Positions 16,805 to 42,881 of a stretch of DNA of 64,000 nucleotides are shown here, piece after piece. A program made the translations under genes and the position numbers. Below the pieces are notes generated by a model. That model saw only the letters and a list, made by a program, of their open reading frames with translations. It made no database searches and was not told where the DNA came from. The stretch lies in the IMG/VR virus record IMGVR_UViG_3300028840_003497, positions 112,268 to 176,267 of that record; one strand, written 5' to 3'. Numbering within the stretch: the stretch's first letter is position 1; the number at the start of each line of letters is the position of its first letter. Source of the stretch: a virus.

Positions 16805-17227
16805 TTAGCGAGCGGCTGCTGGCTTCTTACCACTGGAACGCCGTCGCTTCTTGCTTGCTGTCCGATTTTCATTCCTGGCCGGATTCATGGCATTTGGTCG
16901 GTTCTTTTTCTTAGGAGGAGCCATCCGCCACCCCTTCCTTCCGATCATCGTGTATCTGTATCTATTCCGCAGACGCTCCCACACGAATTTACCCTTGCTC
17001 TTCGCGTAATAGAGCTGCATATAAATGCGCTTTTCAACGTTGAAATATTTGTAAACCGGACCTGGAACCTGGGATCGTTTGCTCTTGCTCTCCTGCCAAA
17101 AACGGACAAAGAGCGTCATTGTCGGCTCATCGTACCCAATAGAATGAACATTCGAACTACTAAAATCCGAGTCCATCACTGGAAGGGTTTTCATTATAGC
17201 CTGCTTCTGTTCAATTAACTCACGCAT
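16805..17227 (-). CDS. KTSC domain protein with basic tail
   Basis: 140 aa. VHSIGYDEPTMTLFVRFW ... GPVYKYFNV ... YYAKSKGKFVWERLRNRYRY contains the KTSC signature (here SKGK), a small domain found in phage and bacterial proteins and linked to nucleic-acid processes. The C-terminal ~35 residues are Lys/Arg/Pro/Ala-rich, likely nucleic-acid binding. The start could also be 17194; SDs are weak for both. Confidence 0.75.
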   Translation of the reverse strand: MRELIEQKQAIMKTLPVMDSDFSSSNVHSIGYDEPTMTLFVRFWQESKSKRSQVPGPVYKYFNVEKRIYMQLYYAKSKGKFVWERLRNRYRYTMIGRKGWRMAPPKKKNRPNAMNPARNENRTASKKRRRSSGKKPAAAR

Positions 17228-27869: not shown

Positions 27870-29327
27870 ATGAAAAACACTGACGAACAACAGGCCATCA
27901 TCAACTCAACACCGTCCACTGGGGGATCGCTTCTAGTCACGGCCTTCGCCGGTACCGGGAAGACCTTCACCCTCCAGAAGTACGCGGAGGAGCGTCCTGC
28001 GGACAAGATTCTATACGCCGCGTTCAATAAAGCGATCCAACTGGAAGCCGAGCGGAAAATGCCGATGAACGTGACCAGCAGGACAACGCACTCACTGGCC
28101 TATCGCGCGTGCGCGCTACCCTATCAGAAGGCCGGGCTCCTGCGCGGATACATCCCGCTATGGGGAGTTGCCAAAATACTGGAGACCAACATCGTGATCG
28201 CAAACTTCGCGCTCTCCGTAGTCAATAACTTCATCGCATCGCCAGATCCGAAGATCACAAGCGCCCACATCGGGCAGGAGATCCACGATTACTACGAACA
28301 GGCTGATCACATGCCACCATTTGTAGAGATGGCGAGAATGATCTGGGACGACATGAAGAGCCTTGGCCAGCGAAGTCTCCCGATGACACACGACGGGTAC
28401 CTGAAACTCTTCCAGCTCTCCGGCCCCGATCTACGCTTCGACTACATCCTGCTCGACGAGGCCCAGGACACCACGCCATGCGTCTGGGATATTATGACCA
28501 ACCAGAGCTGCCGGAAAATAGTCGTGGGCGATGAACACCAAGCGATCTACTCCTGGCGAGGTGCCACTGATGCCTTGAAACTCGTCGAAGATGCCGAACA
28601 CCTTTATCTCACCCAGAGCTTTCGATTCGGACCCGAGATCGCAGCACTGGCCACCACCATGCTGCAGCGATTCAGAGGAGAGAAAAACAAACTCCTTGGA
28701 TTGGAGTCGATCCCTACAAAGATCCATACAGGAGGCCGCCCGGAGAAAAGAACCATGATCTGCCGGGGCAACATGCAAATATTCCGATCCTCCGCCACCG
28801 AGTGCCAATTTGGAGAGAAGAGTCTGGGTTTCGTAGGAGGAGACCACCGTAATTACCGCTTCCAGACCGTACTCGACGCTTACCACGTCTTCGATGATCA
28901 GCCCGAAATGGCCAAGGATGCACTCATCAAATCCTTCGAGACATTCGAAGATCTCCTGGAGTTTGCTGGCAAAACCAAGAACAATGAATTAGAAGGAGCC
29001 TGCCAACTGGTAGAAGAGTACGGTGCAAGGATCCCCATCATATTCCACGAAGTAAAGAATAGAGACGTTGGTGCTAAGTTTGGAGACCTAGCGTTTGCCA
29101 CCGGCCACAAGGCCAAGGGGATGGAATTCCCGGTCGTCGAAATTGGATCAGACTTCAGCGCCCGGATCGAGGCCCACCAGAAGAACCCGAAAGAGGGCAT
29201 CATGAATTCCCACGAGATGAACCTGCTATACGTAGCCATCACCAGGGCCACAGAGCACCTATACCTCTCACCCAGTATTGTGGACTTCATTCAGCACGGA
29301 ACCATCAAAAAGGAGGGACAGCTATGA
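27870..29327 (+). CDS. UvrD/Rep-like superfamily 1 DNA helicase
   Basis: 485 aa. Walker A AFAGTGKTFTL (about 25-35), DEAQDT (motif II), QAIYSWRGA (motif III), a QSFRF motif IV-like region, HKAKGMEF (motif V) and NLLYVAITRAT (motif VI). All SF1A helicase motifs are present; shorter than UvrD (about 720 aa), lacking much of the 1B/2B insertions, closest to FBH1-like or phage Dda-type forms. Translocates 3'-5' on ssDNA in replication or recombination. Leads the rightward operon. Confidence 0.9.
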   Translation: MKNTDEQQAIINSTPSTGGSLLVTAFAGTGKTFTLQKYAEERPADKILYAAFNKAIQLEAERKMPMNVTSRTTHSLAYRACALPYQKAGLLRGYIPLWGVAKILETNIVIANFALSVVNNFIASPDPKITSAHIGQEIHDYYEQADHMPPFVEMARMIWDDMKSLGQRSLPMTHDGYLKLFQLSGPDLRFDYILLDEAQDTTPCVWDIMTNQSCRKIVVGDEHQAIYSWRGATDALKLVEDAEHLYLTQSFRFGPEIAALATTMLQRFRGEKNKLLGLESIPTKIHTGGRPEKRTMICRGNMQIFRSSATECQFGEKSLGFVGGDHRNYRFQTVLDAYHVFDDQPEMAKDALIKSFETFEDLLEFAGKTKNNELEGACQLVEEYGARIPIIFHEVKNRDVGAKFGDLAFATGHKAKGMEFPVVEIGSDFSARIEAHQKNPKEGIMNSHEMNLLYVAITRATEHLYLSPSIVDFIQHGTIKKEGQL

Positions 29328-29617
29328 GTGCAGACAACTGGGCGCTTTGCCCACGGTGCAAAGAGAGGGACATCGAGAGACTCCGCACTGCGGTCGAGAT
29401 GGTCAAGAAATCGTACGGCAAAGTCCCCGAGGAAGAGTACATGCAGATGAAGGAGGATCTCGCCAAGGCAGATCCGGGAAACGCCACCGACCCCACACTG
29501 CGCGAGGACTACGAAATCGGAATCGGGAAGGACGGAATGTTCTCGATAACCTTCCGGGCAAGCTGCAAATGCGGCTTCAGGTTCACGTTCTCGTTCAAGG
29601 AGAAGGTGTTAACATGA
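29324..29617 (+). CDS. Zinc-ribbon-like protein, 97 aa
   Basis: LCPRCKERD near the N-terminus and ASCKCGFRF near the C-terminus form a CxxC...CxC zinc site; the centre is helical and acidic. Overlaps the helicase stop by ATGA, with GGAGGG upstream, so it is translated with the helicase and may be a helicase partner. Confidence 0.75.
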   Translation: MSADNWALCPRCKERDIERLRTAVEMVKKSYGKVPEEEYMQMKEDLAKADPGNATDPTLREDYEIGIGKDGMFSITFRASCKCGFRFTFSFKEKVLT

Positions 29618-29696
29618 AAACTTGATATGATTCGCCTTTAGAGCGATCATGTCTTTAGATGCGGCGCAAGATGCGTCACTGTTGAAAGGATGCAAG

Positions 29697-30380
29697 ATGT
29701 ACAGAGTAAATGTAGAGTTGAACGGTTGCACGGATGTTGGAGGCAGCGACCTCCTGATGCATAACGACAATTTGACGTGGCGGGATGAAATGGATTTGTG
29801 GTTACAAGAACCCTTAAACAAGAATTCCAGCAGGGCCGGGGATGATCGTTCTCCAGCATGGCGCTGGCTCGGTTACTGCTACCACGACGGCGAAGTCGTA
29901 GGAATCCCAAGCGACAACCTGATGACCTGTATGCGGGGCGGAGCAACAATGATCAACGTCCCAGGCAAAGGCAAGAAGACATATAAAGCTCAGAGCCAGA
30001 GCGGACTCTTGGTTAACGAGATTCTGTGGCCAATCACAGTCAATGACGGCCAGATCATCAAATGGGAAGATATTGCTTCCTTGGCAAATGAAGAGGACTT
30101 TAATAAACACGTTGCCCGCGCCAACGAGCTAGGGATCGAATTGTTCGTCAAATCGGTGAGGATCGGGCAGTCCAAGAACATTCGAGTGCGCCCGAGGTTC
30201 AAAAACTGGAAAGCGAAAGGATCAATAACGGTCCTGGACGACACCATCACAATCGATCTATTGAAACGATTTCTGGAATGTTCTGGAATGTTATGCGGAC
30301 TCTGCGATTGGAGACCGTCATCGCCGAGATCACCTGGACCGTTCGGAAAATTCGTCGCCACGGTTACGAAGGCTAAATAG
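29697..30380 (+). CDS. Conserved phage-type protein, 227 aa
   Basis: Starts MYRVNVELNGCTDVGGSD with an AAAGGATG SD; an in-frame ATG at 29649 lacks an SD. The C-terminal segment DWRPSSPRSPGPFGKFVATV matches a pattern I have seen in phage proteins of unknown function that follow replication genes. Soluble, alpha/beta, no enzyme motif seen. The pentanucleotide repeat array begins 19 bp after its stop. Confidence 0.7.
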   Translation: MYRVNVELNGCTDVGGSDLLMHNDNLTWRDEMDLWLQEPLNKNSSRAGDDRSPAWRWLGYCYHDGEVVGIPSDNLMTCMRGGATMINVPGKGKKTYKAQSQSGLLVNEILWPITVNDGQIIKWEDIASLANEEDFNKHVARANELGIELFVKSVRIGQSKNIRVRPRFKNWKAKGSITVLDDTITIDLLKRFLECSGMLCGLCDWRPSSPRSPGPFGKFVATVTKAK

Positions 30381-30398
30381 GTAGACGCATGGATCTGG

Positions 30399-30707
30399 GT
30401 AAGGCTAGGCCAGGCTTGGCGTGGCATGGCAAGGCGAGGATCGTGGCAAGGCGAGGCATGGCGCGGCAAGGCGAGGCGCGGCGAGGAACGTGGCAAGGCG
30501 AGGCATGGCAAGGCGGGGCTGGGCAAGGCGAGGATCGTGGTAAGGCTAGGCGTGGCTTGGCAAGGCTGGGCATGGCGAGGAACAGGGTAAGGTGTGGCAA
30601 GGCAAGGCGGGGCAAGGCATGGCGAGGAACATGGCAAGGCAAGGCAAGGCGCGGCATGGATCGTGGTAAGGCAAGGCTAGGCGTGGCCGGGCAAGGCGAG
30701 GAACGTG
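30399..30707 (+). repeat. 309-bp GGNNN pentanucleotide array with 47-bp higher-order units
   Basis: On the + strand almost every fifth position begins GG (or GA at unit ends). Dominant pentamers are GGCAA, GGCGA, GGCAT and GGCTA. The pentamers are grouped into seven units starting G[C/T]AAGG and ending in GGA[A/T]C-type pentamers plus a 2-nt offset. Unit lengths are 47, 47, 47, 47, 47, 32 and 42 bp, i.e. 47 minus multiples of 5. No stop codon interrupts one + frame, but the Gly/Lys/Arg/Ala/Trp-rich translation looks like a by-product. G2N3 spacing would allow two-tetrad G-quadruplexes in the + strand. Confidence 0.9.
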
Positions 30708-30748
30708 GAAAACATCATGGAGTACAACAGTATCAACGGAGGAGTACA

Positions 30749-31234
30749 ATGAACGAAAACAAGAAAGATGGCCTGTTTTTCGGAGGAGTCCCCACCGATG
30801 GAGACATCCGTCTCCTGGAAAATGAGTACGGAATTCCTGAAATCGGCAAGATTATACCCTACGAGGAGGTGGCTGCCGTCATCAAGTATGACAAGGATTC
30901 GTCACGGTTTAAAACAGTGACACAGCGCTGGCGAAAGAAGATCGAGCGCGACCACAACGTCATCATTGGCACCGAACGCGGGATCGGTTTTGTCGCACTC
31001 GACAACGCCTCTCGTGTTGATCTGGGATCCGACAAATTCAAATACGGCATGAAATCTGTTCGACGCGCGAACAAGGTCGTCTCTTCAACCGACCACTCAG
31101 ATCTTACTGATGATCAAGTTCAAGTCGCCCACCACGTACGACACGTCACCGCCGCACTGGTCGGAGCGGCCAGAATGGAGTCGAAAAAACTTCGGGCTCA
31201 ACTTCCCATGCCTGTCCAGCAGAACAGAAAGTAG
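30749..31234 (+). CDS. Hypothetical protein, 161 aa
   Basis: ATG at 30749 has GGAGGAG at ideal spacing, so translation starts after the repeat array although the frame is open through it. SRFKTVTQRWRKKIERDHN is a helix-turn-helix-like basic segment; GIPEIGKIIPYEEVAAV precedes it. May be a DNA-binding protein. Last gene of the rightward operon, converging on the KilA-N gene with no clear terminator between. Confidence 0.65.
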   Translation: MNENKKDGLFFGGVPTDGDIRLLENEYGIPEIGKIIPYEEVAAVIKYDKDSSRFKTVTQRWRKKIERDHNVIIGTERGIGFVALDNASRVDLGSDKFKYGMKSVRRANKVVSSTDHSDLTDDQVQVAHHVRHVTAALVGAARMESKKLRAQLPMPVQQNRK

Positions 31235-31998: not shown

Positions 31999-32035
31999 CA
32001 CAATAACGGCGCTAATCTCGCCATTTCCAAGATAG

Positions 32036-32122
32036 TGGGCCGGGAAGGATTCGAACCTCCGAAGGGACTAGCCCGCCGGATTTACAATCCGGTGCCTTTG
32101 AACCGCTTGGCGATACCGACCC
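32036..32122 (-). tRNA. tRNA-Tyr (GTA)
   Basis: Acceptor GGGTCGG/CCGGCCC, anticodon stem CCGGA/TCCGG with loop TTGTAAA, long variable arm (class II, as expected for bacterial tRNA-Tyr), T arm GAGG-TTCGAAT, discriminator A. CCA not encoded. Confidence 0.92.
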
Positions 32123-32123
32123 A

Positions 32124-32215
32124 TGGTGCGCGGGGCGGGATTCGAACCCGCCCTGTCTCTGAAGTGTTACCCCGGGGCCTGAACCCGGTGCCTTTACCAG
32201 CTTGGCTACCCGCGC
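32124..32215 (-). tRNA. tRNA-Leu (CAG)
   Basis: Acceptor GCGCGGG/CCCGCGC, anticodon loop TTCAGGC, long variable arm of about 20 nt (class II, normal for Leu), T stem GCGGG/CCCGC, discriminator A followed by encoded CCA. Confidence 0.92.
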
Positions 32216-32216
32216 A

Positions 32217-32290
32217 TGGTGATCCCGACTGGAGTCGACCCAGTGTCTCCGGCTCTTCAAGCCAGCGCTAAACCCCTCAGCTACAAGACC
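32217..32290 (-). tRNA. tRNA-Phe (GAA)
   Basis: Acceptor GGTCTTG/CGGGATC (three G-U pairs), anticodon stem CTGGC/GCCGG, loop TTGAAGA, T arm ACTGG/CCAGT with a GTCGACT loop, discriminator A and encoded CCA. Confidence 0.9.
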
Positions 32291-32293
32291 ATG

Positions 32294-32374
32294 GACGGAT
32301 CGAAGCACATCTGCGCATTTTACATTGCCGTCGAACTGAATCGTCGGTTGCTGCCGTGTGAAATCCGATCCGTC
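32294..32374 (-). ncRNA. Structured 81-nt element inside the tRNA array
   Basis: Lies between tRNA-Phe and tRNA-Leu(GAG) where a tRNA would be expected. A perfect 9-bp closing stem (GACGGATCG/CGATCCGTC), an inner CACA/TGTG pairing and an apical hairpin CCG-x-CGA/TCG-x-CGG. No T-arm consensus and no anticodon loop, so not a normal tRNA. Could be a degenerate tRNA, a processing signal, or a small RNA. Confidence 0.55.
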
Positions 32375-32377
32375 TTG

Positions 32378-32451
32378 TGCGCGAGCTGGGAGTCGAACCC
32401 AGAACCACAGACCCCTCAAGCCTGCTCCTCTTCCAGTTGGGATACTCGCGC
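32378..32451 (-). tRNA. tRNA with anticodon GAG (Leu codons CUC/CUU), class I body
   Basis: Acceptor GCGCGAG/CTCGCGC, anticodon stem CAGGC/GTCTG (one G-U), loop TTGAGGG, variable loop only 5 nt, T arm CTGGG/CCCAG. Bacterial tRNA-Leu normally has a long variable arm; this one does not. CCA not encoded. Confidence 0.85.
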
Positions 32452-32457
32452 ATATAT

Positions 32458-32530
32458 TACGACTGAGTGGATTCGAACCACCAACTTTCGGTTCTTGAAA
32501 CCGACGCCTCTTCCGTTGGGCCACAGTCGC
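32458..32530 (-). tRNA. tRNA with anticodon CAA (Leu codon UUG), class I body
   Basis: Acceptor GCGACTG/CAGTCGT, anticodon stem TCGGT/ACCGA, loop TTCAAGA, 5-nt variable loop, T arm GGTGG/CCACT. Discriminator A, CCA not encoded. Class I despite the Leu anticodon. Confidence 0.85.
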
Positions 32531-32531
32531 T

Positions 32532-32607
32532 TGGTGCGCCCCCTCGGATTCGAACCGAGCCTGAACCGGGCTTAAACCGGATCCCTCTTCCACTGGGGTA
32601 GGGGCGC
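32532..32607 (-). tRNA. tRNA with anticodon TAA (Leu codons UUA/UUG), class I body
   Basis: Acceptor GCGCCCC/GGGGCGC, anticodon stem with four G-C pairs and a T-T mismatch, loop TTTAAGC, variable loop 5 nt, T arm CTCGG/CCGAG, discriminator A and encoded CCA. G at position 37, where tRNA-Leu(UAA) usually has A. Confidence 0.85.
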
Positions 32608-32613
32608 ATATAG

Positions 32614-32689
32614 CAAGTGCGGAAGGATTCGAACCTTCAACCTTTGGATTTGGAATCCAACGCTCTGACCAAATTGGAGCCACGCACCC
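32614..32689 (-). tRNA. tRNA-Trp (CCA)
   Basis: Acceptor GGGTGCG/CGCACTT (two G-U at the end), D stem GCTC/GAGC, anticodon stem TTGGA/TCCAA, loop TTCCAAA, T arm GAAGG/CCTTC, discriminator G as expected for Trp. CCA not encoded. Confidence 0.9.
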
Positions 32690-32694
32690 ATAAG

Positions 32695-32778
32695 CGGAGG
32701 TAGAAAGATTCGAACTTTCAAGCCAGTTTCCCGACCACAGTTTAGCAAACTGCTGCGTTACCATTACGCTATACCTCC
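32695..32778 (-). tRNA. tRNA-Ser (GCT)
   Basis: Acceptor GGAGGTA/TACCTCC, anticodon stem GCAGT/ACTGT, loop TTGCTAA, long variable arm (class II), T arm GAAAG/CTTTC, discriminator G. CCA not encoded. Confidence 0.9.
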
Positions 32779-32782
32779 CTTG

Positions 32783-32855
32783 AGTCTCGGGCCGGGTTCG
32801 AACCGGCGTCCTTCTTGGGTTGCAACCAAGTGCCTCGCCTCTTGGCTACCGAGAC
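32783..32855 (-). tRNA. tRNA-Cys (GCA)
   Basis: Acceptor GTCTCGG/CCGAGAC, anticodon stem CTTGG/CCAAG, loop TTGCAAC, T arm GCCGG/CCGGC, discriminator T (U73, the Cys identity base). CCA not encoded. First tRNA in the direction of transcription. Confidence 0.92.
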
Positions 32856-37782: not shown

Positions 37783-38121
37783 CTAGGAAATTCGGGCGAC
37801 GTAACGGGCGTACTTGTAACCCTCGGTGCTGATGAGATAGTGCTTGTCGCTCGGATCCACGACGACGAAGGACATGCTGGGGGGCTCGCGGTCGAAGTTC
37901 GCAGCGGCAGGAGCTTTCGGCCACTCGGCATAGACCTCCTGCCATGGGACACGTTTCAGCTTGGAGACCATATTCTTGTCCATCTTTTCGAGTTTATTCG
38001 GATCGATCTTCGGGGCGTGGCCCCATCTCGTGACCTTGCTTCCCATCTTGTCGAGGATGCTGTCCGGCAACTGTCCACGAATAAGCGCCTCATCCATTTT
38101 TCTCTCGATTAACTTCTTCAT
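37783..38121 (-). CDS. Tagged protein 1 (MKKLIERK N-terminus), 112 aa
   Basis: Starts MKKLIERKMDEALIRGQLPD, carrying the N-terminal tag common to seven genes at 37.8-40.7 kb. After the tag: a helical region and a beta-rich C-terminus (SFVVVDPSDKHYLISTEGYK). L-I-E at residues 4-6 fits the (I/L)-x-E consensus cut by T4-type prohead proteases. Candidate internal capsid protein (inference). Last gene of the 40717 to 37783 operon. Confidence 0.65.
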   Translation of the reverse strand: MKKLIERKMDEALIRGQLPDSILDKMGSKVTRWGHAPKIDPNKLEKMDKNMVSKLKRVPWQEVYAEWPKAPAAANFDREPPSMSFVVVDPSDKHYLISTEGYKYARYVARIS

Positions 38122-38130
38122 AATAACCCC

Positions 38131-38496
38131 CTACGACGTGACCATCTGAACGATCACTGGATTGGTCGGATCCGTCGTCCCAGGGGTACCGGGGGCCGTC
38201 ACAACCGCAAACGAAAGCGCCGCAAAGTCAAGCCCATCCGGACAGACAATCTGTCTCCGCTGATTGACGGGAACCTTGAAAATAAAGTCCGGGTCCGACG
38301 TGCCAACTGTCGGAGCCGCGTCGTCGTATATCTTCAGATACGCCACGTCCGCCGGGTTGCCACGATTGTCAATGTCCAACATGTAAAGGGTTCCGGCTGC
38401 CCCCGTGACGTTCGTCTCAGGCGTCGCGTTGGCTTCCGTGTCCTTGATTAATTTAGTCCCGACTGGCGAGACCTGTGTCGATACTGAAAGTGTCAT
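38131..38496 (-). CDS. Probable virion beta-sandwich protein, 121 aa
   Basis: Beta-rich with GTLYMLDIDNRGNPADVAYLK, YDDAAPTVGTSDPDFIFKVP and Gly/Thr/Pro-rich loops; typical of small phage head or tail decoration proteins. It is the only gene in the tagged cluster without the N-terminal tag, suggesting an outer location (inference). Confidence 0.6.
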   Translation of the reverse strand: MTLSVSTQVSPVGTKLIKDTEANATPETNVTGAAGTLYMLDIDNRGNPADVAYLKIYDDAAPTVGTSDPDFIFKVPVNQRRQIVCPDGLDFAALSFAVVTAPGTPGTTDPTNPVIVQMVTS

Positions 38497-38551
38497 ACCT
38501 TACCTCCAAGACCCATGGCACCATCGCCACGTTTCTTCTCTATGAATTCCT

Positions 38552-38869
38552 TCACATCTTTTTCCCTGTATCGGGATCAATCCCGCTCAGAACCATCCTC
38601 TGTGTCTCCAGGATCATCAGCATATCGTCCGCTGCTTCGGAGATCGTTCTGAAAAGTACTGCCACCTCTTCTCCGTCTCCATCCGGCATATCGAACAAAT
38701 TCTTGTTCTTCTTGAATCGGCTGTACTTGTCGTCCGCCCATGATCCTACATCATCAACCTTGTCCATCAGCTTCTGGAGCCGCTTGGCCTCTTTAGGATC
38801 CGGATCAGAAAAAGCGTCCGGGCCAACTTTGCGTTTTTCTTCCAATTTTTTCTAGATAATTTTCTTCAT
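38552..38869 (-). pseudogene. Tagged protein 2 with in-frame amber codon after MKKII
   Basis: GGAGGG SD then ATG at 38869 gives MKKII, TAG (38852-38854), then KKLEEKRKVGPD... to the stop at 38552. The codon replaced by TAG is the position of the conserved Glu in the tag. Without read-through, translation could restart at the TTG at 38845. The remaining ~97 aa are helical and charged. Either a nonsense mutation, a sequencing error, or suppressed in the host; TAG is a normal stop elsewhere in the window. Confidence 0.6.
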
Positions 38870-38878
38870 AGTACCCTC

Positions 38879-39145
38879 CTATTTCAGCAGCCCCTCGAAC
38901 TGATCGAGCAAGATGCCAGCTTCGTTAAGATGATCAATCGCCGTAAGCAGGTTGCCATCCAATTCCTGAAGATCCATAGAGTCCATCCCCCACTTCACAC
39001 GTCCCGCACGGTCGACCTGACCCTGCACAAACTTGGCGTCCGATGCAGCTCTCTTCACGCGCTCCGAGAGCTTGGAGACCGTCTTGGCAAACGACCCGGC
39101 GCGAGCCTCCGCCAGACCCTCTTTTTTCTCGATAATTTTCTTCAT
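38879..39145 (-). CDS. Tagged protein 3 (MKKIIEKK N-terminus), 88 aa
   Basis: Tag MKKIIEKK, then an all-helical protein (SFAKTVSKLSERVKRAASD ...). Similar in length and heptad layout to the next upstream gene product, with a shared 'RVK-AAS.A' block, so the two are tandem paralogues. GAGGAG SD. Candidate internal head protein. Confidence 0.7.
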   Translation of the reverse strand: MKKIIEKKEGLAEARAGSFAKTVSKLSERVKRAASDAKFVQGQVDRAGRVKWGMDSMDLQELDGNLLTAIDHLNEAGILLDQFEGLLK

Positions 39146-39435
39146 TATTTACTCCTCTGATCAACGTTTTCCGCCCAGTCACGAAGCGTCTGATTCGCAT
39201 CTTTGAGCGTCTTGATCGCAGAATTGATCTTGGTCTCCAATGCAGACGCTTCCTTGTCTGGAACCTTCCATTTAGATCGCGCTCGCAAGCTCATGTTCGA
39301 GATCACCGAGGAAGCCTCACTGGCAGCCTCCTTAAGACGATCAGCTGTTTTCTCGATATCCTTACCAAGATTCGTGGTAGACATGGAAACACGATGTCCT
39401 GCTTTGCGAGACTTCTTCTCTATCAGTTCTTTCAT
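39145..39435 (-). CDS. Tagged protein 4 (MKELIEKK N-terminus), 96 aa
   Basis: Tag MKELIEKK then helical coiled coil (DIEKTADRLKEAASEASSV), paralogous to tagged protein 3. ATG at 39435 follows GAGG; a longer in-frame upstream extension lacks an SD and would overlap the next gene. Confidence 0.7.
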   Translation of the reverse strand: MKELIEKKSRKAGHRVSMSTTNLGKDIEKTADRLKEAASEASSVISNMSLRARSKWKVPDKEASALETKINSAIKTLKDANQTLRDWAENVDQRSK

Positions 39436-40037
39436 TATTTCCTCTTCATTTCTGCCTGAACGGTAACCGTCAATGGAACCCACACCTCGGTCCTTCCGCT
39501 CGGCCACTTGCGCCGCGTAGGATCGATCATCGTGCCACTCGTACGAATACCAGCAATTTTCACGTTTGGTTTAGTCCATGATTTACGCTCGCTCCATCCA
39601 ACGACTCGCCACACCCAGTTGTCAGGATCTCCAAACCACTTGTGCAACTGCTGCCCCAGAGTCTTGGTCGCGCCTTTTACGCTCGTTCCAAACGCGTCTT
39701 TCATGGCCTTGACGTTCTTGGAGTCTGTCCCTGCGATGTTAAAGTAGTGGTTAGAGGATGCCGCATCAATAGTCGCCCCTGCACCTCCACCCTTGCCGGG
39801 CTTTAACTCCAGATCAAACTTAAAAATCGTCCCACTCTTCGTGTCCTTCTTTTTGAGACGTTTGATGTTGATATCGCCATCAAATCCAGCTTTGATCGCG
39901 GGCTTACCACCAGTCGATTTGTCACCGTTAGGAAGAATGCCCTTTGACAAAAAATTCTTCGCCTGATCGTATTCCTTACCCTCCATCAACGGTTCCACGC
40001 CGATGAACTGACCGAGTTTTTCCATGAGTTTTTTCAT
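39435..40037 (-). CDS. Tagged protein 5 (MKKLMEKL N-terminus), 200 aa
   Basis: Tag-like MKKLMEKLGQFIG, then a beta-rich protein with GTIFKFDLELKPGKGGGAG, SNHYFNIAGTDSKNVKAM and a basic C-terminus. GGAG SD. No domain recognised. Grouped with the tagged cluster. Confidence 0.7.
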   Translation of the reverse strand: MKKLMEKLGQFIGVEPLMEGKEYDQAKNFLSKGILPNGDKSTGGKPAIKAGFDGDINIKRLKKKDTKSGTIFKFDLELKPGKGGGAGATIDAASSNHYFNIAGTDSKNVKAMKDAFGTSVKGATKTLGQQLHKWFGDPDNWVWRVVGWSERKSWTKPNVKIAGIRTSGTMIDPTRRKWPSGRTEVWVPLTVTVQAEMKRK

Positions 40038-40046
40038 AACAGACTC

Positions 40047-40445
40047 CTAATTCATACCAACATAATAGCCGAGTTTCGTCCACCCTGTCTTGCCATAGAC
40101 ATCCTTGACCATCTGAATCGCAGCAACCGTTGATGCCTCTCGGACCGGCGTGTCATCAGCTCCAACAGTATCATACTTCCTATGAACCGGAGATATGATT
40201 TTAGTGTAAAGCTTCCCAGCAATGGGTCCGGCGACTTTCGTGTCGTACTCCGGAATCTTCGCCAGTTTTGAACGAATGGCTTTCTTGAATTTCGCCATGG
40301 CCGAATTGAGTTCCGACACTGCCTTGGAGACAAGAACTTCCTCTTGCTTATCCTCCGGCTCGTACAACCCCCAGAATTTCCAATCCGCCTTCGGAATCCA
40401 GCCCTTCTGGGACTCTTCTAATTTTCTGTCGATTAGTTTACGCAT
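40047..40445 (-). CDS. Tagged protein 6 (MRKLIDRK N-terminus), 132 aa
   Basis: Tag MRKLIDRKLEESQKG, then helical region (SELNSAMAKFKKAIRSK) and a compact C-terminus. ATG overlaps the upstream stop (TGATG). No domain recognised. Confidence 0.7.
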   Translation of the reverse strand: MRKLIDRKLEESQKGWIPKADWKFWGLYEPEDKQEEVLVSKAVSELNSAMAKFKKAIRSKLAKIPEYDTKVAGPIAGKLYTKIISPVHRKYDTVGADDTPVREASTVAAIQMVKDVYGKTGWTKLGYYVGMN

Positions 40446-40717
40446 CACGACATTCCATGTTTTTTGAGAAGCGTAGCGACGGATTTCCCAGTCGCGTCCG
40501 TCTCCCTGGTAATCACCATCCGGACAAACGCCTTGTTGTTTTTTGAATCGAATGTCATCGACGCCTCGTCTTCACCGGCATCGATATACACCTCGTCGGT
40601 GGCCCGATGAACCCGACGGAACCGCTCTGCCTTTAACTCCTGCCGGACACGCTCCGCCGTCTTCTCATCATCGGCCCACCTGTCCTCGCGGCTTATCTTT
40701 TCGATTAAATCTCTCAT
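40445..40717 (-). CDS. Tagged protein 7 (MRDLIEKI N-terminus), 90 aa
   Basis: Tag MRDLIEKISREDRWADD, then alpha/beta with SMTFDSKNNKAFVRMVITRE. ATG follows GGAGG. First gene after the promoter at 40739-40767, so the tagged genes form one transcript with it at the head. Confidence 0.7.
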   Translation of the reverse strand: MRDLIEKISREDRWADDEKTAERVRQELKAERFRRVHRATDEVYIDAGEDEASMTFDSKNNKAFVRMVITRETDATGKSVATLLKKHGMS

Positions 40718-40767: not shown

Positions 40768-41166
40768 CTATCTCTCCCGCTCCTGCCAGGCCCTGGAAAT
40801 CTTGCGTGAAATCTCCCGAACTTCATCGGCAGCATCACCCAACCCCTCCTTCTCCAGGAGATGAATAGTCCACCCCAGTAGCGAACCTGGATCGTATTTA
40901 TTCAGTTTAGGCTGAGATTTCTCTACCAACAATTCGCCGGTCGCACTCTCAATGACAATATCCCCGCTCCACCGATGGCCGTTCTCGCATTCATTCCCGT
41001 GCCCTCGCCGGAACTGATCCAAGCTGTGAGGAAGAACTCTGGATGAGCAACGACACCCAGACACTTTGGCCCCTCCACAAACAGGACATCCGACTTTCTC
41101 GACCTTCGAATTTTCGATGCTCACTAAATCAGACATCTTCTCAGAAAGTAGTCTTATGGTGTTCAT
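40768..41166 (-). CDS. Zinc-ribbon protein, 132 aa
   Basis: CPVCGG...GCRC...HGNECENGHRW gives a zinc ribbon at about residues 27-67; then a helical C-terminal part. Overlaps the HEXXH gene by ATGA. Function unknown; could help DNA or protein binding in the virion. Confidence 0.7.
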   Translation of the reverse strand: MNTIRLLSEKMSDLVSIENSKVEKVGCPVCGGAKVSGCRCSSRVLPHSLDQFRRGHGNECENGHRWSGDIVIESATGELLVEKSQPKLNKYDPGSLLGWTIHLLEKEGLGDAADEVREISRKISRAWQERER

Positions 41167-42881
41167 AATTTCCTCGTCGCCACAAGTGCCAACTTGCGCG
41201 CGTTCTTGGCTTTCTTTAGATCCTTGGCCGACTGGGAGTGTATTGCAACACGGAACGACTCAGCGGCCTTCTCGTGACTCTCAGCGGCCTCTAGTGCCAT
41301 CTCAGCATCGACACCGTTTTTGTTCTTGGCCTGTTTCCGGAGGTAGATCGCGTCCTGCTCGTGCCAGCCCATCATCTGCTCGGCCTCGCGAAGCTTCTTG
41401 CTCGACACGCCCTCACAGAACACGGCCAAATTCTCGGCCAGAATCTCCAATTCATTCTCAGGACCCACACTCTCACGTATTGCGCTCCGCAACCGATCTA
41501 CATGCGGACCCTTGAGCCGACCAAGGACGTAAAACGCGAAGTTCTCGGCGAATTCTTCCTCAGCATTCCGCGACGCGTAGTCAGTAGAAAATTCTGCCTT
41601 CTTAAAATTTCGTGCCCACTGCCTACGCTGCGCGCCGCTCATAAACCTAGCCCAATACCTGTGCGCCATCTCGTGCAGGAGGTCCTTCGCTCCCACACCG
41701 GCGTACATAAAATCCTTGGGTTTGGAGTAGATATGAATCTTATCAGCCCCTGGTAAATAGGCTGCTGACGCCTGCCATGTCTTTCCTGTCTGACCACCAA
41801 GCCACGATTTCGCTGCATCCTTGCCGATCTTGCGCTGCCCCTTGGAACGGCCTTTCACAACGATTACACCGTACCACAACTTTCCAAACCCCTTCTTATT
41901 TAAGAGTTTCTGAGTCCGGATTGCCTCCTTAACATACTGATGCAGTTGCTTCGGACTGCGCTGAACGTCCTGGCCACCTTTTTTCGCATTCGCTGGATTC
42001 ATCTCTATCGGAAGCGTATCCAGAACTAAAGTAACCTTTCCGATCTTCGCCTCTGGAAGCGCCTCGTAAAAACCAGAAAGTTTCACACCATCCTTGTTTA
42101 GACTATCCTGCGCCTTCTTCATAGGAAGGAGTATTTCTTTCTCTATCTTCTTGAGTTGGTTGAAAATCTCATCAAGAAGTACGCGATCAACACGCTTTAC
42201 TTTATCCCTGGTCCGTTGGAACAACGCGCGCCAGAAAGACTGCCCATCCTCCGCAGTTATTTTTTCGAAATCATTGCACCCCTTGGACATATAATCTGCA
42301 ATTCCCCAGATCATGTTTTCGACATCGTCTATCTTATAAATCAAACGCGCCTGGAAATTTCGCAAATCGTACGCTTGGACAGTCCCATCCGTATTCATCA
42401 TGGCGTATTGGCCACCGTACTCTTTGTGATCCTTTGTCTTTTTTCCAGATCCTTTATATGGCCAAAAACCCTGAACATATAGCAAATTGTCACGGAGCCT
42501 CCGGATCCGGGTGATCCCCTCGGCCAGAAATTTGTACGCATCACAAATGTGCTTCCGATCGTAATAATCCATGTCTGGGAGGGCCTTCTTCTCGCCCTTT
42601 TTCCACTGCAACCACCATTTCCGAACGCCTTTGATCCACTCCTGAGTTATCTTTTCCTCGATCAGCACTCCCATCGTGCCGGGCTCAGCGGCCTCCGCCT
42701 TGGAAATCCAACAATCGAAATCCGGGCTCTTGCATACGTTTTTGTAAATGGTGGTCACCAAAGAGTAGAACTTATCGGGATCGCTCTTTTCGAGCCCCGC
42801 ACCATATTCCTTTGCAACGATACCCTTCGCCTTTTTCCAGGCTTTTTCTCCGTCCGGCGTTCTTACAAAATTAGCTGGCAT
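41163..42881 (-). CDS. Large HEXXH metallopeptidase-like virion protein
   Basis: 572 aa. N-terminus FVRTPDGEKAWKKAKGIV...KFYSLVTTIYKN is a short segment common to phage structural or internal proteins. Near residue 70 lies MGVLIEEKITQEW, an internal version of the (L/I)-I-E tag. LLHEMAHRYWARF (HEXXH) with EEEFAENFAFYVLGR (Glu ligand) is a gluzincin site. C-terminal 100 residues are Ala/Lys-rich helices. Could be an injected peptidase, or a maturation enzyme (inference). Confidence 0.7.
   Translation of the reverse strand: MPANFVRTPDGEKAWKKAKGIVAKEYGAGLEKSDPDKFYSLVTTIYKNVCKSPDFDCWISKAEAAEPGTMGVLIEEKITQEWIKGVRKWWLQWKKGEKKALPDMDYYDRKHICDAYKFLAEGITRIRRLRDNLLYVQGFWPYKGSGKKTKDHKEYGGQYAMMNTDGTVQAYDLRNFQARLIYKIDDVENMIWGIADYMSKGCNDFEKITAEDGQSFWRALFQRTRDKVKRVDRVLLDEIFNQLKKIEKEILLPMKKAQDSLNKDGVKLSGFYEALPEAKIGKVTLVLDTLPIEMNPANAKKGGQDVQRSPKQLHQYVKEAIRTQKLLNKKGFGKLWYGVIVVKGRSKGQRKIGKDAAKSWLGGQTGKTWQASAAYLPGADKIHIYSKPKDFMYAGVGAKDLLHEMAHRYWARFMSGAQRRQWARNFKKAEFSTDYASRNAEEEFAENFAFYVLGRLKGPHVDRLRSAIRESVGPENELEILAENLAVFCEGVSSKKLREAEQMMGWHEQDAIYLRKQAKNKNGVDAEMALEAAESHEKAAESFRVAIHSQSAKDLKKAKNARKLALVATRKL

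What the first reader, a model, noticed from the sequence alone, without database searches (positions are those of the whole stretch)
37783..40717. A family of seven neighbouring genes sharing an N-terminal tag M(K/R)xLIE(K/R)K
Seen: starts MKKLIERK, MKKII*KK, MKKIIEKK, MKELIEKK, MKKLMEKL, MRKLIDRK and MRDLIEKI, after which the proteins differ completely except for two helical paralogues. Established: T4 internal proteins (IPI-IPIII, Alt) carry a short N-terminal capsid-targeting sequence cleaved by the prohead protease at (I/L)-x-E. Inference: L-I-E or I-I-E at positions 4-6 fits exactly, so these genes probably encode internal head proteins targeted by a shared propeptide and injected with DNA.
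Basis: partly seen in the sequence, partly recalled or inferred. Interest (0 to 1): 0.85.

Follow-up and report, generated by a model that had tools for sequence, protein, structure and literature searches.

The report
Phage head-targeting tag on many proteins
An uncultured T4-like virus of bacteria puts the same short starting tag on at least 17 mostly unrelated small proteins, most likely an address label that loads them into the virus head for injection with the DNA, which would let one read the injected proteins straight from the genome.

Summary
The window belongs to a 176 kb T4-like phage record. Six intact genes plus one with a TAG stop inside the tag lie at 37783-40717. One more tag is at 17227 and ten form a second late-gene cluster outside the window: 17 intact tags, with no matches on the other strand or in a reversed-pattern control. 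The tag recurs in related phages. Freeing position 6 over five genomes leaves 35 E, 2 D and nothing else; codons vary synonymously, so selection acts on protein. The genome encodes a gp21-type prohead protease (S77), gp23-type capsid protein and gp20-type portal. Tagged proteins are small, mostly unrelated, and basic (median pI 9.4 versus 5.4), like mature T4 IPI-III (9.0-9.7). One correction: LIE at residues 4-6 is usually followed by K/R, whereas a second [LIM]xE|[AGS] site at residues 10-22 is enriched and often kept in relatives (NLEE|ASF, FISE|G, PLME|G). This matches T4 IPI (tag, linker, ITE|A), so the tag is probably the address and the second site the usual cut. Virion content and cleavage are untested.

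The parts
37783..38121 (-). tagged gene, 112 aa, MKKLIERK; candidate second site M-D-E|A at residues 9-11
   Evidence: no Pfam/PHROG family above cut-off
38552..38869 (-). tagged gene with the tag interrupted: MKKII-TAG-KKLEEKRKVG; open again from a TTG at 38845 (97 aa)
   Evidence: relative with intact tag in G001, L055:6066; only tag-plus-TAG case in the genome
38879..39145 (-). tagged gene, 88 aa, MKKIIEKKEGLAE|A; helical paralogue 1
39145..39435 (-). tagged gene, 96 aa, MKELIEKK; helical paralogue 2
39435..40037 (-). tagged gene, 200 aa, MKKLMEKLGQFIGVEPLME|G
   Evidence: relatives in G001 and G005; in the N-terminus M1, E6, G9, G13, E15, L17, E19 are invariant
40047..40445 (-). tagged gene, 132 aa, MRKLIDRKLEE|S
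   Evidence: G001 relative MRELIERKIQE|A
40445..40717 (-). tagged gene, 90 aa, MRDLIEKI; no second site
   Evidence: G001 relative MKELIEKA
16805..17227 (-). tagged gene far from the clusters, 140 aa, MRELIEQK followed by a KTSC domain
   Evidence: PF13619 E 1.1e-14; tag kept in G001 and G002
38493..38555 (-). 20-codon ORF with GTG start, VKEFIEKKRGDGAMGLGGKV: possible tag remnant
   Evidence: weak
41163..42881 (-). neighbour, 572 aa, with an internal tag-like MGVLIEEK near residue 69 and a HEMAH motif; membership uncertain
   Evidence: no family

Best explanation
The tag M-[RK]-x-[LI]-[IL]-E-[RK]-x is a capsid-targeting sequence of this clade of T4-like phages. It sits at the N-terminus of small, mostly basic, mostly unrelated cargo proteins and takes them into the prohead core. 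The S77 prohead protease, here one polypeptide with a long helical part that looks like the scaffold, then removes the N-terminal peptide after an (L/I)-x-E. Where a second [LIM]xE|[AGS] site lies at residues 10-22 this is probably the cut; where none is present the cut may be after E6 (as the order of residues in T4 Alt, MELITE|L, would allow) or the tag may stay on. The mature proteins are packed with the DNA and injected; by analogy with T4 IPI and IPIII some should counter host defences. Shown here: the tag, its spread, the invariant E6, the protease and T4-like head genes, the enriched and often conserved second site, the basic bodies. Inferred: targeting, cleavage, injection, anti-defence role.
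For: 17 matches on the coding strand, 0 on the other, 0 in control; ten related records have 2-17 pattern matches each, 66 in all, 64 of them on the main strand of their record, against 3 in the reversed control. Position 6 freed: 35 E, 2 D, no other residue. Prohead protease, gp23-type MCP and gp20-type portal. Protease N-termini in relatives keep an early LIE|[SAT] and a later LxE|[AGS], the same two-site layout. Second site within residues 7-35: 20 of 52 tagged against 15 of 209 untagged, Fisher 1.2e-7; no such excess with other P3 classes or with P1 D, Q, R or A (P1 K did run above the untagged rate). Relatives keep NLEE|ASF, F[IL]xE|[GSA], PLME|G, and G003 keeps LDE|ASYDNK although its start differs. 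Body pI 9.37 against 5.36 for untagged of the same size range (1.2e-10) and 5.70 for untagged neighbours (1.3e-5); T4 mature IPs 9.0-9.7. T4 IPI has the same layout, MKTFKEF...ITE|A. T4 literature: CTS targeting by the N-terminal part and processing by residues 8 and 10, cleavage at L/I-x-E (PMC9026906); T-even IPs differ except for the CTS (PMC3012670); IPIII needed in the cytoplasm of ECOR17 (PMC9391042).
Against: No virion or proteomic data. Beyond M1, K/R2, a hydrophobic residue 4 and E6 the tag does not match the T4 CTS. 32 of 52 tagged proteins lack the strict second site. A few tagged genes lie far from the late clusters (17227; G005 23.8 and 154 kb), and those two in G005 are acidic. 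No body matched a known internal protein. Gene calls and start sites are my own.
Confidence: 0.83

Rival explanations
1. One reading: the tag itself is the whole propeptide and the protease cuts after Glu6 (LIE|K/R).
For: L/I-x-E is the gp21 consensus (PMC9026906); E6 is invariant; the clade's protease carries the same LIE at residues 5-7 of its own N-terminus; T4 Alt begins MELITEL and loses a short propeptide.
Against: Position 7 is basic in 34 of 44 unbiased cases while the protease's own candidate sites and the enriched second sites have S, A, G or T. In T4 IPI the E6 of MKTFKEF has F, not L/I, at P3 and the fitting site is further on. LID occurs in a few tags, and Asp at the P1 position blocks T4 processing without blocking targeting (PMC9026906).
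Confidence: 0.3
2. The tag is an address for another partner (tail or baseplate, membrane, or a host protein) and has nothing to do with the head.
For: Cluster 1 lies beside the presumed baseplate end and cluster 2 beside presumed tail tube genes; direct proof of head location is lacking.
Against: Shared (L/I)xE grammar with the prohead protease, enriched cut sites, basic bodies, same layout as T4 IPI.
Confidence: 0.1
3. The shared starts are a translation or mRNA signal, not a protein signal.
For: The motif sits at the start codon, often behind a purine-rich stretch.
Against: LIE is spelled with many synonymous codons (TTAATCGAG, CTGATAGAG, TTGATTGAA) and E6 is invariant as an amino acid.
Confidence: 0.02
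4. The genes are ordinary paralogues that diverged except at the start, and the tag is a relic.
For: One pair in the window is related.
Against: Other tagged bodies of this genome give no BLASTP match to each other, and relatives with well conserved bodies keep or restyle the tag.
Confidence: 0.04

Closest known systems
T4 internal proteins IPI, IPII, IPIII and their capsid-targeting sequence (MKTYQEFIAE|A; MKTFKEF...ITE|A)
   Same: Short N-terminal sequence on small basic unrelated proteins; K at 2, hydrophobic at 4, E at 6; (L/I)xE|A site after the tag; gp21-type protease
   Different: Tag sequence differs (LIE[KR] instead of [YF]xEF); at least 17 cargo genes in two clusters instead of three IPs; bodies without detectable relation; protease joined to a scaffold-like part
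T4 Alt (MELITEL) and T4 gp67 (MEGLIEAI)
   Same: Hydrophobic-x-E within the first six residues; gp67 even has L-I-E at 4-6
   Different: No basic residue at 7 in either; gp67 is a core protein that is degraded, Alt is a large enzyme
phiKZ / SPN3US head propeptides
   Same: Protease of the same broad kind, propeptides on packaged, ejected proteins
   Different: S/A-x-E cleavage, propeptides mostly over 100 residues (PMC5694885, PMC9026906)

Membership tests
T4-type capsid-targeting sequence / internal proteins | Short N-terminal sequence shared by otherwise unrelated small proteins | tested here: met
T4-type capsid-targeting sequence / internal proteins | gp21-family prohead protease and T4-type head (gp23, gp20) in the same genome | tested here: met
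T4-type capsid-targeting sequence / internal proteins | (L/I)-x-E cleavage site closing the propeptide | tested here: inconclusive
   L/I-x-E present in nearly all tags; strict second site in 20 of 52, enriched over 15 of 209; which one is cut is unknown
T4-type capsid-targeting sequence / internal proteins | Sequence MK-T-[YF]-x-E-F | tested here: not met
   only M1, K/R2, hydrophobic 4 and E6 agree
T4-type capsid-targeting sequence / internal proteins | Basic mature proteins | tested here: met
   median pI 9.37 against 5.36; T4 9.0-9.7
T4-type capsid-targeting sequence / internal proteins | Bodies related to IPI, IPII or IPIII | tested here: not met
   no PHROG family and no Pfam family above cut-off for the tagged proteins scanned except KTSC; T-even IP bodies are themselves unrelated to each other, so this row weighs little
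T4-type capsid-targeting sequence / internal proteins | Present in the virion, cleaved, injected; tag sufficient for packaging | not testable with these tools
   needs virions and a cultured phage
phiKZ/SPN3US-type propeptides | S/A-x-E site and mostly long propeptides | tested here: not met
   P3 of the enriched site is L/I/M; site at residues 10-22

The most novel reading that the evidence does not exclude
The LIE core of the tag imitates the protease's own N-terminal LLIE, so cargo is recruited by docking to the fused protease-scaffold rather than to a separate scaffold as thought for T4: one short peptide would serve as address and protease ligand, and the clade would carry a large, fast-changing set of injected proteins addressed by it.
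Probability: 0.2. Interest if true: 0.75.

Novelty: new variant of a known kind. Interest (0 to 1): 0.62.

Why it matters
In T4 only three internal proteins share the targeting sequence; IPI blocks a host restriction enzyme and IPIII is needed in certain hosts. A tag that can be read from sequence gives a list of likely injected proteins for a whole clade of uncultured phages, at least 17 in one genome, nearly all without a known family. That makes injected early-acting proteins searchable from metagenomes and gives a second natural capsid-targeting peptide to compare with that of T4.

Tried and rejected
DNA similarity to cultured phages: none. Tag pattern in Caulobacter phage Cr30, cyanophage S-RIM12, Listeria phage LIS04, T4, a marine single-virus record and a 595 kb phage: numbers about those of the reversed control or weakly above it, no cluster seen. 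Scans with tagged proteins in viral contigs found few or no relatives, so relatives were taken from records found with the protease. Structure models of two tagged proteins were poor (mean pLDDT 43 and 61); the tag came out helical in both, but with low confidence in the first; the fold search gave nothing. T4-type late promoter TATAAATA: one hit, on the wrong strand. Another strain's copy of the interrupted tag was not found in viral contigs. The HAD-like look of the tagged G005 protein (L063:494) was not confirmed by Pfam. Literature searches found no report of this tag, within the open-licence papers held.

Full report
Where it lies. The window is positions 112268-176267 of a 176,267-base IMG/VR virus record. 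Almost all genes run on the minus strand (249 of 255 called). The record has a gp23-type major capsid protein (PF07068), a gp20-type portal with intein domains, a tail sheath and a prohead protease of family S77 (PF03420), so it is a T4-like myovirus. Its capsid protein is at best about 31% identical to any record of the phage collection, and no DNA match to the tag region exists there.

The observation. Six are intact; the seventh has TAG for codon 6, with a TTG start just behind it. TAG is an ordinary stop in this genome (76 of 255 genes). A relative of that gene in record G001 has an intact tag. The tag is not confined to the region: one more is at 17227, on a KTSC-domain protein, and ten are in a second cluster at genome 6-16 kb, which in the gene order follows the tail sheath and presumed tail tube genes.

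More than chance. Ten of 255 called genes start with the medium-strict motif against 0.07 expected (P about 7e-19). The degenerate DNA pattern gives 17 matches on the coding strand and none on the other strand or in the reversed control. In ten related records, found through the protease, the pattern matches 66 times, 64 of them on the main strand of the record, against 3 in the control. To avoid counting what was selected for, each position was freed in turn over the genes of five records: position 6 is E in 35 and D in 2 with no other residue; position 7 is R or K in 34 of 44; position 4 is L in 33 of 39; position 5 is I in 27 of 38. Codons vary synonymously, so this is a protein signal.

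What carries it. Apart from one pair, the tagged bodies of this genome show no similarity to each other, and apart from the KTSC protein none has a Pfam family above cut-off or a PHROG. They are short (median 112 aa) and basic: median pI 9.37 against 5.36 for untagged proteins of 50-330 aa and 5.70 for untagged genes within three genes of a tag. The mature T4 internal proteins are at 9.0, 9.6 and 9.7. The contrast holds within G000, G001 and G003 on their own, not significantly within G005.

How it probably works. In T4 the first ten residues of IPIII are enough for packaging; the N-terminal part carries the targeting, residues 8 and 10 the processing, and gp21 cuts after L/I-x-E (PMC9026906). 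IPI has the same tag type, then a linker, then ITE|A at residue 19. Here, too, a second [LIM]xE|[AGS] is enriched at residues 7-35 of tagged proteins: 20 of 52 against 15 of 209 untagged N-termini (Fisher 1.2e-7) and 16 of 148 windows inside the same proteins (3e-5). Relatives often keep this site where the residues before it differ: MRDLLEKMKYVKGDNLEE|ASFDD and MKKIIENLTAKGAENLEE|ASFDN; FISE|G, FIAE|S and FLDE|A before a basic stretch; PLME|G twice; LEE|S and IQE|A. In G003 the relative of the first keeps LDE|ASYDNK with a different start. The protease of the clade itself mostly begins MPNLLIE|S...LTLTE|A or close to it, that is LIE followed some ten residues on by a second site. I therefore take the tag as the address and the second site as the usual cut. 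Tags without a second site may be cut after E6; this cannot be decided here.

Known or new. The layout and setting are those of the T4 capsid-targeting sequence, so it probably works like one. The letters are different and the bodies unrelated, so it is filed as a new variant and not as the T4 sequence itself. Six cultured or named records tested show no comparable set of tags. Papers held describe the T4 case and its meaning (PMC3012670, PMC9958956, PMC9391042) and the longer propeptides of giant phages (PMC5694885), but not this tag.

Limits. Gene calls are from my own scoring script, the related records are not independent samples, and several are fragments. Some tests (52 tagged proteins) mix genomes of different relatedness, while the untagged comparison set is from this genome only. 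Whether any tagged protein is in the virion is unknown.

Noticed in passing
genome 40163-41788 (L007:1163-2788, minus): The S77 prohead protease is one 541 aa protein whose C-terminal two thirds look like a coiled-coil scaffold; in T4 these are gp21 and gp22. RaK2 gp092 is annotated as prohead core scaffolding protein/protease (PMC3622015).
   Followed up: partly
genome 43878-47747, 47751-51041, 52091-55006 (minus): Intein splicing or homing-endonuclease domains in the portal (two splicing stretches plus HNH), in the large protein next to it (probably terminase) and in a SNF2-type helicase.
   Followed up: partly
window 41163-42881 (minus): 572 aa protein with a HEMAH motif like a zinc metallopeptidase; its N-terminal 60 residues recur at the start of separate proteins in G001 and G005.
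   Followed up: no
window 32035-32855 (minus): Cluster of nine tRNA genes, four of them for leucine.
   Followed up: no
window 27870-31234 (plus): Short island of genes on the opposite strand with opposite skew, led by a helicase-like protein (MKNTDEQQAIINSTPSTGGSLLVTAFAGTG).
   Followed up: no
L054:405-761 (record G001): Staphylococcal-nuclease homologue (PF00565) without a tag, directly before a tagged gene.
   Followed up: partly
genome 10194-10535, 193 kb in G001, 52 kb in G003: Related proteins with a tag-like start but G, D or S where the cut-site E would be (FISG, FIAD, FISS): possibly targeted but uncut.
   Followed up: no
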